NCBI RefSeq assembly: GCF_000022145.1
Contig: NC_011891.1
Span: 2,554,001 to 2,618,000 of the forward strand
DNA from: Anaeromyxobacter dehalogenans 2CP-1
GTDB lineage: Bacteria; Myxococcota; Myxococcia; Myxococcales; Anaeromyxobacteraceae
Direction: 5' to 3'
DNA length: 64,000 bases
Shown here: positions 7,127-13,028 of the stretch, one piece after another
How positions within the stretch are numbered: position 1 is the first letter of the stretch
How the letters are laid out: every line of letters starts with the position of its first letter
Notes under the pieces: generated by a model
The model's input: only the letters and a program-made list of their open reading frames with translations
Database searches by the model: none
What the model was told of the DNA's origin: nothing
Position numbers and translations under genes: made by a program

Positions 7127-8017
7127 CTACTTGCCGGCCACGCGGCCGGCCTCGGCGTCGCGGGCGCGCAGCTCGGCGAGCGCGTCGCGCGCCGCGGCGC
7201 GGACCCGCGGCTCGGGGTGGCCGGCCTCGAGCGTGAGCAGGTACCCCTTCGCCTCGGGCCCGCCGATGTCGCCGATGATGCGCACCAGCGCCAGCGCCAT
7301 GCCGCCGTCGCCGCGCTGCGAGAGGTCGATGAGCGGTCCCACCGCCCGCGGGTCGCGGATCTGGCCGAGCGCGCCCACCGCGAGGTGCGCCACCTCCGGC
7401 TCCGGATCGCGCAGCCGCTCCACGAGCGCCGGCACCGCCTCGCGGGCGCGCCGCTCGCCGGCCACCCGCACGGCGTGCCGCCGCACCCGCGCGTCGTCGG
7501 CGCCGAGATCGCGCACCACGGCGCCGGTGGGCTTCGCGTCCTCCGCCGTCGCCAGCGCGAGCGCCTCGGCCGCGCCGCGCGCCCCGAGGGCCAGCGCGGA
7601 CCGCCACGCCTCGGCGGGACCGGCCGCGAGCGTGGCGGCGCCGGCGGCGGTCTCGCGCACGGCGGTGCCGTCGACCCCGTCGGCCGGGACGAGCTCCAGC
7701 AGCACCGCGGTCTCCACCCGCGCCACGCCGCCGGGCGGGCCGGGCACGAACCGGATGCCCACCACGTCCACGCGCGCCTGGTGCGGGCGCTTCCCCTCGC
7801 CGAGGCGAAACCCGGCGCCGGCGAGCGCGTCGCGCGCGGCGGACTCGAGGGCGGCGGCGTCCAGGCCGGCCTCCACGAGCGGTCCGGCCAGCGCCCCGGG
7901 CTCGGCGCGGATCGACACCACGTGCACCGGCGGTGTCCCCGGCCGGCAGGCCGAGGCGAGGAGGAGCGCGCCCGCCGCGATCCCCACCCCCCTCCGCCAT
8001 CGCGCCGGTCCGGGCAT
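7127..8017 (-). CDS. HEAT-repeat lipoprotein
   Basis: From ATG 8017 the 296-aa protein has a basic N-terminus, a hydrophobic stretch and the lipobox LASAC (Cys24), so it should be lipid-anchored. The middle is an unassigned alpha/beta region; residues from about 180 on are HEAT-like repeats, e.g. DDARVRRHAVRVAGERRA, DPEPEVAHLAVGALGQIRD, and HPEPRVRAAARDALAELRA, each a helix pair typical of protein-binding scaffolds. It follows the HARE-HTH gene by 16 nt and may share its message. The longer frame upstream is composed only of Arg/Pro/Ala low complexity in the shadow of that gene and was not used. Confidence 0.8.
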   Translation of the reverse strand: MPGPARWRRGVGIAAGALLLASACRPGTPPVHVVSIRAEPGALAGPLVEAGLDAAALESAARDALAGAGFRLGEGKRPHQARVDVVGIRFVPGPPGGVARVETAVLLELVPADGVDGTAVRETAAGAATLAAGPAEAWRSALALGARGAAEALALATAEDAKPTGAVVRDLGADDARVRRHAVRVAGERRAREAVPALVERLRDPEPEVAHLAVGALGQIRDPRAVGPLIDLSQRGDGGMALALVRIIGDIGGPEAKGYLLTLEAGHPEPRVRAAARDALAELRARDAEAGRVAGK

Positions 8018-8033
8018 CGCGTTCGGCCGTGCG

Positions 8034-9908
8034 TCAGGCCTCGGGATCGCCGCGCCCGGGCTCCGGCGGCGGCGGCTCGGGAGCGCGCTCGCGCTCGGGC
8101 TCGGCCACCGGGGCCGCGGCCGGAGGCGGCGGCTCAGCGCGCTCCCGCGGCTCGGAAGGCAGAGGCGGAGGCGACGCCTGCGGCGCGGACTCCGGCACCG
8201 CGACCGGCCAGGCCGGCTCGCCGGAGGCGGCGGCCCCGGCGGCGGGCGCAGCGCCCTCGACCGGTGCGCCCGCGGGCTGCGGGCCGGCGCCCTCGCGGTT
8301 GCGCCCGCGGCCGCCGCGGCGGCGGCGGCGGCGACGACGGCGGCGGCGCTCGCCGGTGCCGGGCTCGCCCGCGGCGCCGTTCGCGGCGACCTCCGCCGGC
8401 TCGTCCTCGCCCTCGGGGCCCTCGGCACCCTCCGGCCCCTCGTCCTCGCCGCCCTCCTCGTCGTCCTCGAGCGGTCCGGCGCCGGGCGGGAGCGCGGCGG
8501 GGAGCTCCTCCACCGCCAGCTCCGCCGGGACCTCGACCACGCGCGCGGCGGCGGCGCCCGCGAGCTCGGCCACCTCGGGCGCCTCGGGCGACGACGCCTC
8601 GACGGCGATGCCCCCCGCCGCGGGGCGCGGACGCTCGTCGCGCCGCGGCTCGCGCCGCTCCTCCCGCCGGCGGTCGCGATCGCCGCGATCCTCGCGCCGG
8701 TCGCGCTCCTCGCGCCGCGCCAGGCGGGCGGACTCCTCCGCCGCGGCGGCCGCGGCGGCGGCCTGGAAGAACGCGTCGTCCACCTCCGGCACCACCACCG
8801 GCACGCAGCCGACGCCGGCCTCGACCAGGGCCTCGGCGAAGCCCTCGCCGCAGAGCAGGATGACCGGGAGCTGGCCGGCGGCGGACGCCTCGCCGCGCGC
8901 GTCGCGCGCCGCGTCGCCCGCGGTGACCACGACGCCGATCTGCGCGCCGTAGTGGACGAGGTCGCGGCGCAGGTCCGTCACGTCGCGGCGGGACGCCTCG
9001 GTGCCGGTGCGAACGATCCGGACCGCGTGGCGCAGGTCCGCGAGCCCCATGCGCTTCCGCGCCGTGCAGACCACGTGCTCGCGGCCGCGCTTGGCGACCT
9101 TCACCTCGCGGTAGCCGAGCTTCTCGAGCATCCGGATGGCGACGTGCTCGACCGTGGGCGGCTCGCACTCGCGCAGGCGGCGCCGCAGGGCGGCCAGCGC
9201 GGCGCGGCGCAGGTCGCCGGGGGCGGCGGCCGCGGGGCGCGGGGCCGGCGCGGCGGGACGCTCGCCGGGCTCGGGCTGGGCGATGAGCGTGACGGCCTCG
9301 CCCTCGACCTGGAAGAGCGGGTGGCGGCCGGCCGCCTCGCGCCGGCGGTTGTCCTCGGCGAGCGCGGCGGACAGCGACGCCGTGTCGCGGACGAACGCGT
9401 CCGGCATGAGCATCCGCTCGGCGCCCTGCAGCGCGATCTCCGCCAGCGTGAGCGCGCGGCCGGCGCCGGCCAGGATCTCGTAGGCGACCTCGGCGGGCGG
9501 CGGGAAGCGCCGCGCGCGGCGATCCTCCTCCTCGCGGCGTCGGCCGCGGCCGGCCTCGCCGCGTCCGGTCGCCCGCGCCATCTCGCGCGAGGGCGCCGGG
9601 TGTCGCTCCCGCCCGCGGTAGGGCAGCTCGTTCTCGGGCGGCGGCTCGATCAGGTTGTCGAGGCCGTGGGGATCCTCGTCCAGGGCCCACTCCGACAGGG
9701 CGAACGTGCCGGGTTGCACCGGCAGCATGCGGCGATCGGCGTGGGGGAGCCGGCAGTGCGCGGCGAGCTGATCCGCCAGGGTTTCCTCCGGGATCTTGCC
9801 GACATGGTCGAGCAGGTTCTCCCGGATGGCGATCTCGGCGATCTTCCTGAAGTGGAGAGGCTTCCCCTCGCGCCGCAGCACCTCGATGGCGGCTTCGGTG
9901 AAGGTCAT
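8034..9908 (-). CDS. HARE-HTH protein with Mrr-like domain and disordered tail
   Basis: A 624-aa fusion. Residues 1-75 (MTFTEAAIEVLRREGKPLHF, then KIAEIAIRENLL) match the HARE-HTH winged helix found in ASXL, RpoE-delta and restriction systems. A second, more divergent winged-helix-like unit lies around 135-210 (VAYEILAGAGRALTLAEIAL). Residues 230-375 resemble the Mrr restriction-endonuclease fold (MLEKLGYREVKVAKRG, then GAQIGVVVTAGDAARDAR, then VILLCGEGFAEAL), but the acidic residues and QxK expected of an active Mrr site are not evident, so it may be a degenerate nuclease used for DNA binding. From 385 the tail is charged low complexity: Arg/Asp/Glu-rich, acidic 480-505, then eleven consecutive Arg (521-531), then Pro-rich. 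Start chosen at ATG 9908, where the HARE domain begins. Confidence 0.75.
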   Translation of the reverse strand: MTFTEAAIEVLRREGKPLHFRKIAEIAIRENLLDHVGKIPEETLADQLAAHCRLPHADRRMLPVQPGTFALSEWALDEDPHGLDNLIEPPPENELPYRGRERHPAPSREMARATGRGEAGRGRRREEEDRRARRFPPPAEVAYEILAGAGRALTLAEIALQGAERMLMPDAFVRDTASLSAALAEDNRRREAAGRHPLFQVEGEAVTLIAQPEPGERPAAPAPRPAAAAPGDLRRAALAALRRRLRECEPPTVEHVAIRMLEKLGYREVKVAKRGREHVVCTARKRMGLADLRHAVRIVRTGTEASRRDVTDLRRDLVHYGAQIGVVVTAGDAARDARGEASAAGQLPVILLCGEGFAEALVEAGVGCVPVVVPEVDDAFFQAAAAAAAAEESARLARREERDRREDRGDRDRRREERREPRRDERPRPAAGGIAVEASSPEAPEVAELAGAAAARVVEVPAELAVEELPAALPPGAGPLEDDEEGGEDEGPEGAEGPEGEDEPAEVAANGAAGEPGTGERRRRRRRRRRRGGRGRNREGAGPQPAGAPVEGAAPAAGAAASGEPAWPVAVPESAPQASPPPLPSEPRERAEPPPPAAAPVAEPERERAPEPPPPEPGRGDPEA

Positions 9909-9977
9909 GTACGTCCTTGGACGGAGGTCACGAGCTGTCGGGGCCGCCAGCAGGCGGGCGGCCGCATCGGTACCCTC

Positions 9978-10006
9978 ATCTTCGTGCCGTGGACCGGGCC
10001 TGTCAA
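9978..10006 (-). promoter_or_regulatory. Candidate promoter of HARE-HTH gene
   Basis: Minus strand TTGACA (10001-10006), 17-nt spacer, GAAGAT (9978-9983). The -35 shares the palindrome TCAACGTTGA (10003-10012) with a TTGAAA on the plus strand (10009-10014) that could serve the divergent propeller gene. Confidence 0.45.
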
Positions 10007-10046
10007 CGTTGAAAGTGCCTGATTCCGCGATGATTCTTCCGGTTCG

Positions 10047-12281
10047 ATGATCCGGATCCGCACGGGTACCAGCTGGCGCCTCGACCCCGACCTGAGCGCC
10101 GCGCTTCGCCGCGCCGCCGGGCCGGCGCGGACCGCCGCCACCCGCGCCATCGTGGACGCCCTGGCCATCGAGGTGGACGGCATCGACATCGCCGGGGGCC
10201 GGGCCGAGGGCCCGCTCCTCCCCTCCCTGGAGGCGCTGCTGCGCGCGGTGGCGCGGGTGGTCGGGGGCGCCCCGCACGCCGCGGTGGCCTTCCACGAGGG
10301 CGCCCTGGAGCTGGTGCTGCGGCGGCGTGGCGCGAGCGCGCTCCTCACGCTCGTCTCGCTGGCCCGGCCGTCCGGTGTCCTCGCGCGGGACGTCGAGGTC
10401 GACCTCGATGCGCTCGCCGCCGCGGCCCTCGAGGCCGCCGCCGAGCTGTGCCGGGAGCTGGCCGAGGCCGCCCCCTCGGCTGCCCGGGACGCGAGCCGCC
10501 TGCGCGCCGCCGCGCGGGACCTGCGCCGGACCGAGGCGGCGCCGGCCCCCGGGCCGCGGCCGCCGGTGCGTGCCCGCCGGCCGGGTCCCACCCCGCGCCC
10601 GGGGCGCGTCGCCTGCACGGTGGAGCTCGCCGACGACGAGGGCGTCCTCCTCGCCTACCCCGGTGGCCGGCCCGACCTCGGCTCGCTGCTCGCGCCGGGG
10701 ACGGTGCGGGTGCTGGCCGAGGACGGCGCCGAGCTGCTCGCGCTGCACGGATTCCCGTTCCTCGCGCTGCGCGACCTGGTCGCGGCCGCGGGCGCGATCG
10801 TGGGGGCGGTCCGGCGCCGCGAGGCCGCGCTCGAGGTCCCGCTCTCCCGGGCCGGCCGCGCGCCGGCGCGCACCCTGGAGCTGGACCTCGCCGGCGGGCG
10901 GGTGCGCGCCGGCGGCGTGGCGCGGCCGGCGCCGCCGCTGGCGCTGGCGAGGGCGGTGGCCGAGGCCGCGCTCGACCTCTGCCGCCTGGCGCGCGCGCGC
11001 AACCCGCGCCAGTCGGAGAACGCGTACCTGGCCGAGCTGGAGGCGGCCGCGGCGGAGCGGCTGGCGCAGGTGGAGGAGCTGGCCGGCGGCGATCTCTCCG
11101 CCGGCGCCTCCGCCGGCGAGGCCCGAGCGCGCGGCCCCGCCGGCGCCGCCGGCGCACCGCTCGGCCCCGGGCGCCTGCGGCGGCTCTCCTTCCGCCGCGC
11201 CTGGTCGGTGGACGTGGGCGCGCCGGCCGGCCCCGGTCTGTGGAACGCCGGGGCGCTCACGGTCGCCGCCGGTGCCGAGGCGGTGGTCGCGGTGGACCGC
11301 GCCCGCGGCGAGGTGGCGTGGCGCGCCGCCGGCGGCCTCCGGGTGGCGCCGCTGCCCGGCGCGGCGCTGGTGTTCCGGCCCGGGAGGCTGGAGGCGCTCG
11401 CGCTCCGCACCGGGCGGCTGCGCTGGGGCCGGACGCCGCCGGGGGCGGATCCGGACGGCGCGGTCGCGCTCGCCGGCGGGCCGGTGGTGCTGGTGGAGCC
11501 GGGGGCGCTCACCGGGCTCGAGGCCGCCACCGGGCGCACGCTGTGGCGCCTGGAGCTCCCCGGGCGTCCGCGCCTGCGGGCGGCTGCGTTCGGCGGCGTC
11601 GCCGTGGCCGCCTCGGACGCCGGCTTCGTCTACGCGGTGGACGCGGCCGGACGGCTGGCCTGGCGCGTGCGCGCGCCCGGCGCGCCCTGCTGCGCGCCCT
11701 CCTCCGGCGCCGGCGCCTGCCTGGTGCTGGCCGAGGCCGGCGCCGGGACGGCGCTCCTCGCGCTCGACCCGTCCACCGGCGCGCGCCGCTGGGAGGCGCC
11801 GCTCGACCTCGTCCCCGCCGGCCCGCCCATCGCGTGGGGCCCGCGCCTCGCGGTGGTCGGGACCGTGGGCGGCGATCCGGCCGTCACCGCGCTGCGCGGC
11901 GACGGCAGCGCGGACTGGACCGACGCCCCGCCGCTCGCCGGCGCGCCCGCGGCGGCCGCCGCCGGGCCGCTGCTCGCGCTCCGCGACGCCGCCGGCGCGC
12001 TGGTGGCGCTCGGGCGCGACGGCGCGGTGCGCTGGAGCCGGGCCGCGCCGCCCGGCCACCTGCCGCCCGGGGCGGCCGCGCCGGCGGTGGCGCGCGGGAC
12101 GCTGCTCGTGCCGGGCGAGGGGATCGCCTGCCTGTCGCTGCGCAGCGGGGAGCCGGTGGGCGCGATCGCGGCGGTGGCCCCCGCCCGGCTGACGGTGGAC
12201 GGCGCCCTTCGCGTCGCCGCGATGGACCTCGACGGCCTGACCACCGGGTTCCGGCTCGCCACCCACCTCAGCGTGGTGTGA
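10047..12281 (+). CDS. PQQ-repeat-like beta-propeller protein
   Basis: A 744-aa protein without a signal peptide. Residues 1 to about 390 are Ala/Arg/Leu-rich, mostly helical and unassigned, including a likely coiled segment around 330-360 (QSENAYLAELEAAAAERLAQ). The C-terminal half is a beta-propeller of PQQ-enzyme/WD-like repeats, each ending in a Trp-containing strand: VDRARGEVAWRA, LRTGRLRWGR, LEAATGRTLWRLEL, VDAAGRLAWRVRA, LDPSTGARRWEAPL, LGRDGAVRWSRAA. There are no dehydrogenase-specific residues, so an enzymatic PQQ role is unlikely; it is probably a protein-interaction propeller. It is divergent from the HARE-HTH gene across 138 bp and convergent with the phosphoesterase gene (12-bp gap). 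Confidence 0.75.
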   Translation: MIRIRTGTSWRLDPDLSAALRRAAGPARTAATRAIVDALAIEVDGIDIAGGRAEGPLLPSLEALLRAVARVVGGAPHAAVAFHEGALELVLRRRGASALLTLVSLARPSGVLARDVEVDLDALAAAALEAAAELCRELAEAAPSAARDASRLRAAARDLRRTEAAPAPGPRPPVRARRPGPTPRPGRVACTVELADDEGVLLAYPGGRPDLGSLLAPGTVRVLAEDGAELLALHGFPFLALRDLVAAAGAIVGAVRRREAALEVPLSRAGRAPARTLELDLAGGRVRAGGVARPAPPLALARAVAEAALDLCRLARARNPRQSENAYLAELEAAAAERLAQVEELAGGDLSAGASAGEARARGPAGAAGAPLGPGRLRRLSFRRAWSVDVGAPAGPGLWNAGALTVAAGAEAVVAVDRARGEVAWRAAGGLRVAPLPGAALVFRPGRLEALALRTGRLRWGRTPPGADPDGAVALAGGPVVLVEPGALTGLEAATGRTLWRLELPGRPRLRAAAFGGVAVAASDAGFVYAVDAAGRLAWRVRAPGAPCCAPSSGAGACLVLAEAGAGTALLALDPSTGARRWEAPLDLVPAGPPIAWGPRLAVVGTVGGDPAVTALRGDGSADWTDAPPLAGAPAAAAAGPLLALRDAAGALVALGRDGAVRWSRAAPPGHLPPGAAAPAVARGTLLVPGEGIACLSLRSGEPVGAIAAVAPARLTVDGALRVAAMDLDGLTTGFRLATHLSVV

Positions 12282-12293
12282 GCCGCGGTCGGT

Positions 12294-13028
12294 TCAGACG
12301 CCCAGGAACAGCCGCTTACCGAAGTTCAGCGCCAGGTCGGCGTCGAAGACCTTCTGCGCCGAGGTCTCGATGTCGTAGGGCACGCGGTGGAACTCCACCA
12401 CGCGCTCCTCGGTGTCGTAGGTGACGAAGCAGGCGCGGTTGTCGCAGTCGCGCGGCTGCCCCACCGAGCCCACCGAGATCACGTACTTGTAGCCGCGGCG
12501 AAGCCCGAACCGCGTCGCCACCACCTCGTTGACGTCGCCGGAGGGGTGGATCGCGAACGACTTGCACAGGTGGGAGTGGCCCACGAAGTTCACGTCCTCG
12601 AGCGCGTCGAGGTGCGGGACGAGGTCCTTCGCCTGCTCCTTCGCGAACACGTACTCGTAGGCCTGCGGCGCGGCCGGGTTGCCGTGGCTCAGCCCGACGC
12701 CCGGGAGCCGGTGCGTGTACGGCAGCGCGCGCAGCCACTCGAGGTGGTCCGGGTCGATGCGCGCCGCGGTCCAGTCCAGCGCGTGGCGGGCGGCGTCGTA
12801 GTAGAAGCTGTAGTCCATCCGCCCGGCCACCGCGGCGTCGTGGTTGCCGAGCAGCGTCACCTCGGCCACCTTGCGCACCAGCGCGCAGCACTCGTTCACG
12901 CTCGCGCCGTAGCCGACCACGTCGCCCAGGCAGTAGATGCGATCCGGGCGCAGGCGCTCCAGCGCGGCCAGCGACTCGGTCAAGGCCTCGAGGTTCGAGT
13001 GGATGTCGGAGATGATCCCGATGCGCAT
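12294..13028 (-). CDS. Calcineurin-like metallophosphoesterase
   Basis: A 244-aa cytoplasmic phosphodiesterase/phosphatase of the YfcE/MJ0936-like group. All five metal-binding blocks are present: SDIHSN (D8, H10), CLGDVVGYG, LLGNHDAAV, LSHGNP, and FVGHSHL. The C-terminal half is the typical two-layer beta extension (VISVGSVGQPRD). The physiological substrate is unknown. A strong promoter just upstream has its -35 box inside the stop region of the kinase gene, so it can be transcribed separately from that gene. Confidence 0.88.
   Translation of the reverse strand: MRIGIISDIHSNLEALTESLAALERLRPDRIYCLGDVVGYGASVNECCALVRKVAEVTLLGNHDAAVAGRMDYSFYYDAARHALDWTAARIDPDHLEWLRALPYTHRLPGVGLSHGNPAAPQAYEYVFAKEQAKDLVPHLDALEDVNFVGHSHLCKSFAIHPSGDVNEVVATRFGLRRGYKYVISVGSVGQPRDCDNRACFVTYDTEERVVEFHRVPYDIETSAQKVFDADLALNFGKRLFLGV

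What the first reader, a model, noticed from the sequence alone, without database searches (positions are those of the whole stretch)
8034..9908. HARE-HTH joined to a degenerate Mrr-like nuclease fold and an eleven-Arg tail
Seen: a HARE-HTH at 1-75, a second winged-helix-like unit at about 135-210, an Mrr-like region at 230-375 lacking an obvious D...QxK site, and about 240 residues of charged disorder with eleven Arg in a row. Known: HARE-HTH domains link to restriction and chromatin factors. Inference: a DNA-binding, perhaps nucleoid-type, protein built from a dead nuclease, or a defence component.
Basis: partly seen in the sequence, partly recalled or inferred. Interest (0 to 1): 0.66.

Follow-up and report, generated by a model that had tools for sequence, protein, structure and literature searches.

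The report
Cutting-dead restriction enzyme turned core protein
This gene makes a DNA-binding-type protein built from a restriction enzyme that has lost its cutting residues; almost all surveyed relatives in this bacterium's order (Myxococcales, by inference) keep it next to housekeeping genes, which suggests a defence enzyme recycled for an everyday chromosomal job that is still unknown.

Summary
ORF 8034-9908(-) encodes 624 aa: HARE-HTH at 1-74 (Pfam E 7.8e-26), a second winged helix at about 135-210 that profile comparison identifies as a divergent second HARE, an Mrr_cat domain at 245-360 (E 3.8e-14), and a 239-aa disordered tail with R11. The Mrr domain is homologous to active Mrr enzymes (hhalign E 3.6e-14; best solved folds AspBHI and MspJI), but the catalytic Lys is lost in all 48 family members aligned, Gln is replaced by Arg/Lys, and the Asp site is hydrophobic in the best alignment. 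A match occurs in 95 of 97 genomes of the order, including genomes of 2-3 Mb, beside HEAT/lipoprotein, hom, glpX, birA and coaX genes. HARE-Mrr relatives with an intact D..QxK site exist in other classes of the phylum, one inside a defence-like operon. Best reading: a type IV-like HARE-Mrr restriction enzyme lineage that lost catalysis and was retained as a core, non-cutting nucleic-acid-binding protein. The defence reading is not supported; a nucleoid or RNA polymerase role remains untested. The poly-Arg run is a sub-lineage feature, not part of the conserved core.

The parts
8034..9908 (-). CDS, 624 aa, tandem HARE - degenerate Mrr - disordered tail protein
9687..9908 (-). HARE-HTH domain 1 (aa 1-74)
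   Evidence: Pfam PF05066 E 7.8e-26; 28/28 orthologues
9597..9617 (-). linker motif RxxERxP (aa 98-104)
   Evidence: R98, E101, R102, P104 identical in all 47 orthologues with sequence there
9279..9506 (-). second winged-helix unit (aa 135-210), a divergent second HARE
   Evidence: model pLDDT about 75-90; hhalign to HARE 1 E 3.4e-6; weak Pfam HARE hits in orthologues, below cut-off
8754..9221 (-). degenerate Mrr_cat / PD-(D/E)xK-fold domain (aa 230-385)
   Evidence: Pfam E 3.8e-14; hhalign to five Mrr enzymes E 3.6e-14; AspBHI/MspJI best solved folds
9066..9080 (-). site of the lost catalytic Asp (aa 277-281, EHVVC)
   Evidence: alignment with intact homologues; column counts
9009..9020 (-). 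degenerate QxKR site (aa 297-300, RIVR)
   Evidence: Q to R/K in 48/48; K to L/V/I (rarely F/A/D) in 48/48
8037..8753 (-). disordered charged tail (aa 386-624)
   Evidence: composition
8316..8348 (-). run of eleven Arg (aa 521-531), followed by GGRGR
   Evidence: an R8-GGRGR-coding pattern occurs once in the whole genome
7127..8017 (-). downstream neighbour: HEAT-repeat lipoprotein-like gene
   Evidence: PF13646 E 3.5e-16; HEAT gene in the same position in other families
10047..12281 (+). divergent upstream neighbour: PQQ-type beta-propeller gene
   Evidence: PF13360 E 1.4e-33; conserved upstream in most loci examined

Best explanation
A HARE-Mrr modification-dependent restriction enzyme lineage lost its catalytic residues and was retained as a single core protein. 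Shown: tandem HARE plus Mrr fold; loss of the catalytic Lys and Gln in all members aligned; strict retention of other, mostly Arg, residues; near-universal presence in the order; stable housekeeping neighbourhood; intact HARE-Mrr homologues elsewhere, one in a defence-like operon. Inferred: the two HARE winged helices and the Arg-rich dead Mrr domain bind DNA without cutting it, possibly reading a base modification or DNA structure, while the charged tail adds loose contacts with nucleic acid or partner proteins. It would act as a constitutive chromosome-associated or transcription-linked factor.
For: HARE 28/28 and Mrr_cat 28/28. Profile-profile match to Mrr enzymes, E 3.6e-14 over 152 columns, running to the C-terminal D-x-[YF]F motif. 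Fold: AspBHI Z 10.3, MspJI Z 9.6; the same two lead with the domain folded alone, Z 7.5-7.6. Catalytic columns over 48 sequences: QxK becomes [RK]-x-[mostly LVI]; Asp site hydrophobic. R274, G288 and R293 48/48; R284, R307, R314 46/48. Distribution: every genome of the order except two, including 2.1-2.7 Mb genomes. Neighbours hom, glpX, HEAT, birA, coaX. Intact HARE-Mrr in G002 and G004; the G002 gene is flanked by DUF1156 methyltransferase, PLD-helicase and QatA-like genes. The tree puts the dead family together (95/77).
Against: No DNA-binding or localisation data. Conserved Arg may be structural. An acidic residue at 277 is kept in 48/48 and one simple alignment places it on the catalytic Asp, so the active-site loss rests most firmly on the missing Lys. 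The clade support is only moderate and the direction (active to dead) is inferred, not rooted. Structure models are of middling confidence (mean pLDDT 58 and 62) and HARE 1 was poorly modelled.
Confidence: 0.6

Rival explanations
1. It is an RNA polymerase-associated factor that works like the Firmicutes delta subunit: the HARE domain docks on the polymerase and the charged disordered tail displaces nucleic acid.
For: Same layout of folded N-terminal domain plus charged disordered C-terminal region as delta (delta description: PMC7749165). Pfam HARE-HTH also hits the Bacillus subtilis control genome. Core, near-universal gene.
Against: The tail is mixed-charge (about -16 net over the last 244 residues), not strongly acidic like the delta tail (-47 over 83 residues, PMC7749165). 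The extra HARE and Mrr domains have no counterpart in delta. No rpo genes seen nearby.
Confidence: 0.12
2. It is an RNA-binding protein: winged helices plus an Arg-rich GGRGR tail act on ribosomes or RNA turnover.
For: Arg run followed by GGRGR in this genus and relatives; the second winged helix resembles RNA-binding Egalitarian and Z-nucleic-acid domains at middling Z of about 7.
Against: The Arg run is missing from several families that keep the folded core; nearest folds of the Mrr domain are DNA endonucleases; winged-helix matches at Z 7 are not specific.
Confidence: 0.1
3. It is an active or partner-dependent type IV restriction / defence protein.
For: PADLOC candidate family PDC-S02 matches the Mrr part, E 1.6e-16; active relatives are defence genes.
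Against: Catalytic Lys absent in 48/48; present in nearly every genome of the order and next to metabolic genes; no match in the plasmid or phage collections searched.
Confidence: 0.05
4. It serves the neighbouring envelope-type genes (HEAT lipoprotein, PQQ propeller), for example as their regulator.
For: HEAT gene and divergent PQQ gene stay adjacent in most loci examined.
Against: In the G058 genome and a 2.3-Mb genome (L043, L046) the PQQ gene was not found beside it; a local regulator would not obviously need tandem HARE plus a dead nuclease domain.
Confidence: 0.08

Closest known systems
HARE-Mrr (PDC-S02-like) modification-dependent restriction enzymes
   Same: HARE-HTH plus Mrr_cat in one protein; the G002 protein aligns through the whole Mrr domain
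   Different: Those keep D..QxK and the G002 gene sits among defence genes; this family has lost the site, has a second HARE, a conserved RxxERxP linker and a charged tail, and sits among housekeeping genes
E. coli Mrr (EcoKMrr) type IV restriction enzyme
   Same: Homologous nuclease-fold domain and C-terminal motif
   Different: Mrr_N domain absent, HARE instead; QAK replaced by R-x-hydrophobic
AspBHI / MspJI (modification-dependent endonucleases)
   Same: Closest solved folds of the domain
   Different: Active enzymes with SRA-like N-terminal readers (from general knowledge), not HARE
NA-iREase1 (NACHT-associated inactive REase)
   Same: Inactive Mrr-like domain; weak sub-threshold hit (20.5 bits against cut-off 27)
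   Different: No NACHT ATPase here
RNA polymerase delta subunit (RpoE, Firmicutes)
   Same: Folded N-terminal domain (HARE) plus disordered charged C-terminal region (PMC7749165; control genome hit)
   Different: delta has no second HARE or Mrr domain; its tail is strongly acidic

Membership tests
HARE-HTH domain proteins (PF05066) | HARE-HTH domain above the curated cut-off | tested here: met
   90.7 bits against 25.9; 28/28 orthologues
Mrr-type restriction endonucleases | Mrr_cat nuclease-fold domain | tested here: met
   53.2 bits against 21; hhalign E 3.6e-14
Mrr-type restriction endonucleases | catalytic D...QxK | tested here: not met
   Lys replaced in 48/48 and Gln replaced by R/K in 48/48; Asp site hydrophobic in the alignment with intact homologues
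Mrr-type restriction endonucleases | Mrr N-terminal domain (PF14338) | tested here: not met
   no Pfam hit; winged helix 2 does not match the Mrr N-terminal profile
HARE-Mrr type IV-like defence systems | defence-gene neighbourhood and patchy distribution | tested here: not met
   housekeeping neighbours; match in 95 of 97 genomes of the order
RNA polymerase delta subunit | HARE-type N-terminal domain | tested here: met
RNA polymerase delta subunit | strongly acidic disordered C-terminal region | tested here: not met
   mixed-charge tail, net about -16 over the last 244 aa, against -47 over 83 aa (PMC7749165)
RNA polymerase delta subunit | binds RNA polymerase | not testable with these tools
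   needs pull-down or structure
Nucleoid-associated proteins | abundant, genome-wide DNA binding | not testable with these tools
   needs ChIP-seq and proteomics

The most novel reading that the evidence does not exclude
A whole bacterial order or class has domesticated a modification-dependent restriction enzyme as a non-cutting reader of its own DNA: tandem HARE domains plus a dead Mrr domain recognise an endogenous modification or DNA structure and organise the chromosome or transcription, a bacterial parallel to the HARE-containing chromatin factors of eukaryotes.
Probability: 0.2. Interest if true: 0.78.

Novelty: new variant of a known kind. Interest (0 to 1): 0.52.

Why it matters
Restriction enzymes are usually mobile, patchy and expendable. 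A restriction-enzyme relative that has lost its active site yet is kept in nearly every genome of a bacterial order, even in small ones, points to exaptation of a defence protein into a basic cellular job. It also gives a single-copy bacterial HARE protein (the only HARE-HTH in this genome) in which the proposed modification-reading role of HARE domains could be tested without the complication of DNA cutting.

Tried and rejected
Defence-system reading: tested by neighbourhood, distribution and catalytic residues, rejected. Second unit as an Mrr N-terminal domain: profile comparison gave no match. Relatives in phages, plasmids and viral contigs: none. Sequence search of solved structures, single and profile: nothing significant. 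RPB5 (a eukaryotic RNA polymerase subunit) appears in the fold lists at Z of about 5-6; below the level that means anything, so not used. Literature: the paper that defined HARE-HTH (PMC3272235) is not held, so I could not check whether its authors already listed this myxobacterial family.

Full report
What is there. The ORF at 8034-9908 on the minus strand codes for 624 residues from an ATG. Pfam gives HARE-HTH at 1-74 (E 7.8e-26) and Mrr_cat at 245-360 (E 3.8e-14), with a sub-threshold hit to the inactive family NA-iREase1. The tail from about 386 on is low in hydrophobic residues, with an acidic stretch followed by eleven Arg at 521-531 and GGRGR.

The second winged helix. AlphaFold on residues 1-400 with three close orthologues gave its best confidence at 140-210 (block means 76-90). 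A profile of this segment from 28 orthologues matches the profile of the first HARE (probability 87.7, E 3.4e-6) and not the Mrr N-terminal domain. Pfam itself scores it only weakly.

The Mrr domain is homologous but dead. Twenty-six orthologues compared by profile with E. coli Mrr and four plasmid Mrr enzymes give E 3.6e-14 over 152 columns (reference alignment). Foldseek and VIA-align put the modification-dependent endonucleases AspBHI and MspJI first, also when the domain is folded alone, at lower Z. In the Mrr references D203, Q219 and K221 are invariant. In 48 family sequences the Gln column is Arg (43) or Lys (5) and the Lys column is Leu, Val or Ile with rare Phe, Ala, Asp; never Lys. 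The Asp column depends on the alignment: aligned directly to Mrr, the acidic residue E277 (Glu 34, Asp 14) falls on D203; with intact HARE-Mrr relatives added it falls on D199 and the D203 site is deleted or hydrophobic. The missing Lys is enough to call the canonical site lost. Meanwhile R274, G288 and R293 are identical in 48/48 and R284, R307 and R314 in 46/48, so the domain is under constraint for something else.

Distribution. A profile search of 146 genomes of the phylum found the family in 100. Counting the rows, 95 of 97 genomes of the order carry a match; the two misses are draft assemblies of the same genus and family, and no genome of the same order outside the family is listed without a match. 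Genomes of only 2.1-2.7 Mb keep it. Double matches per genome in the large family are, where I extracted the ORF, two segments of one ORF. A full-length relative occurs in another order of the class (G058, E 3.5e-107). G007, from another part of the phylum, has an unmistakable HARE and a highly diverged C-terminal part without a visible QxK.

Neighbourhood. In this window the gene is followed by a HEAT-repeat lipoprotein-like gene, a second lipoprotein-like gene, homoserine dehydrogenase, a thioesterase and glpX, and preceded by a divergent PQQ propeller gene. In the Myxococcaceae-type genomes the HEAT gene stays and birA and type III pantothenate kinase follow; in G058 homoserine dehydrogenase and glpX are there. 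No defence genes were seen beside it.

Intact relatives. G002 has a 521-aa-frame HARE-Mrr protein with GDGGVD and QAK, next to a DUF1156 methyltransferase, a PLD-helicase and a QatA-like KAP ATPase; G004 has a HARE-Mrr protein (439-aa frame) whose sequence reads DGGID and QVK. The tree places the dead family on one branch with moderate support (95/77). The simplest history, not proven by rooting, is loss of activity once, early in the class.

Conserved extras. The linker motif RxxERxP is identical in all 47 sequences that cover it, unusual for a disordered linker, and may be a docking site (inference). The poly-Arg run is kept mainly in two families and absent in most others, and an R8-GGRGR-coding stretch occurs nowhere else in this genome; it is an accessory.

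How it most likely works. Two HARE domains and an Arg-rich dead nuclease domain suggest a protein that binds nucleic acid, probably DNA, without cutting it. HARE domains have been proposed to read modified bases (PMC11037411; PMC10853773), and HARE-REase fusions in phosphorothioate loci were proposed to discriminate modified DNA. Binding, target and cellular role are all inferred here. The delta-subunit comparison is an analogy of layout only; the charge of the tail differs.

Verdict. The dead-nuclease reading is well supported, the defence reading is not, and the nucleoid idea is open. What the tools add is the scale: a near-universal, catalytically dead relative of a restriction enzyme across an order, with its active cousins elsewhere in the phylum.

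Noticed in passing
L072:5565-8381(-) (G007): The G007 HARE protein's open frame runs on in frame into a lipoyl-ligase (LplA/B) domain, 939 aa in all; fusion or two adjacent genes without a stop between is not settled.
   Followed up: partly
L066 (G070:C341:66909-67322): A same-genus draft genome lacks a match to the orthologue but carries a different, apparently intact Mrr protein with GDGGID and QVK.
   Followed up: partly
window 9597-9617: Strictly conserved RxxERxP motif in the linker between the two HARE units, 47/47 orthologues; role unknown.
   Followed up: partly
window 12294-13028(-): Calcineurin-like phosphoesterase gene; a similar gene lies next to the HARE gene in G007 and near it in G058, hinting at old synteny.
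   Followed up: partly
L070:243-9615(+) (G002): Operon-like row of DUF1156 methyltransferase, PLD-helicase, HARE-Mrr nuclease and QatA-like ATPase, a candidate defence system.
   Followed up: no
window 7131-10022(+), 8034-12266(-): Very long open frames on both strands are by-products of about 80% GC; the minus-strand ORF upstream of the ATG is not part of the gene.
   Followed up: yes
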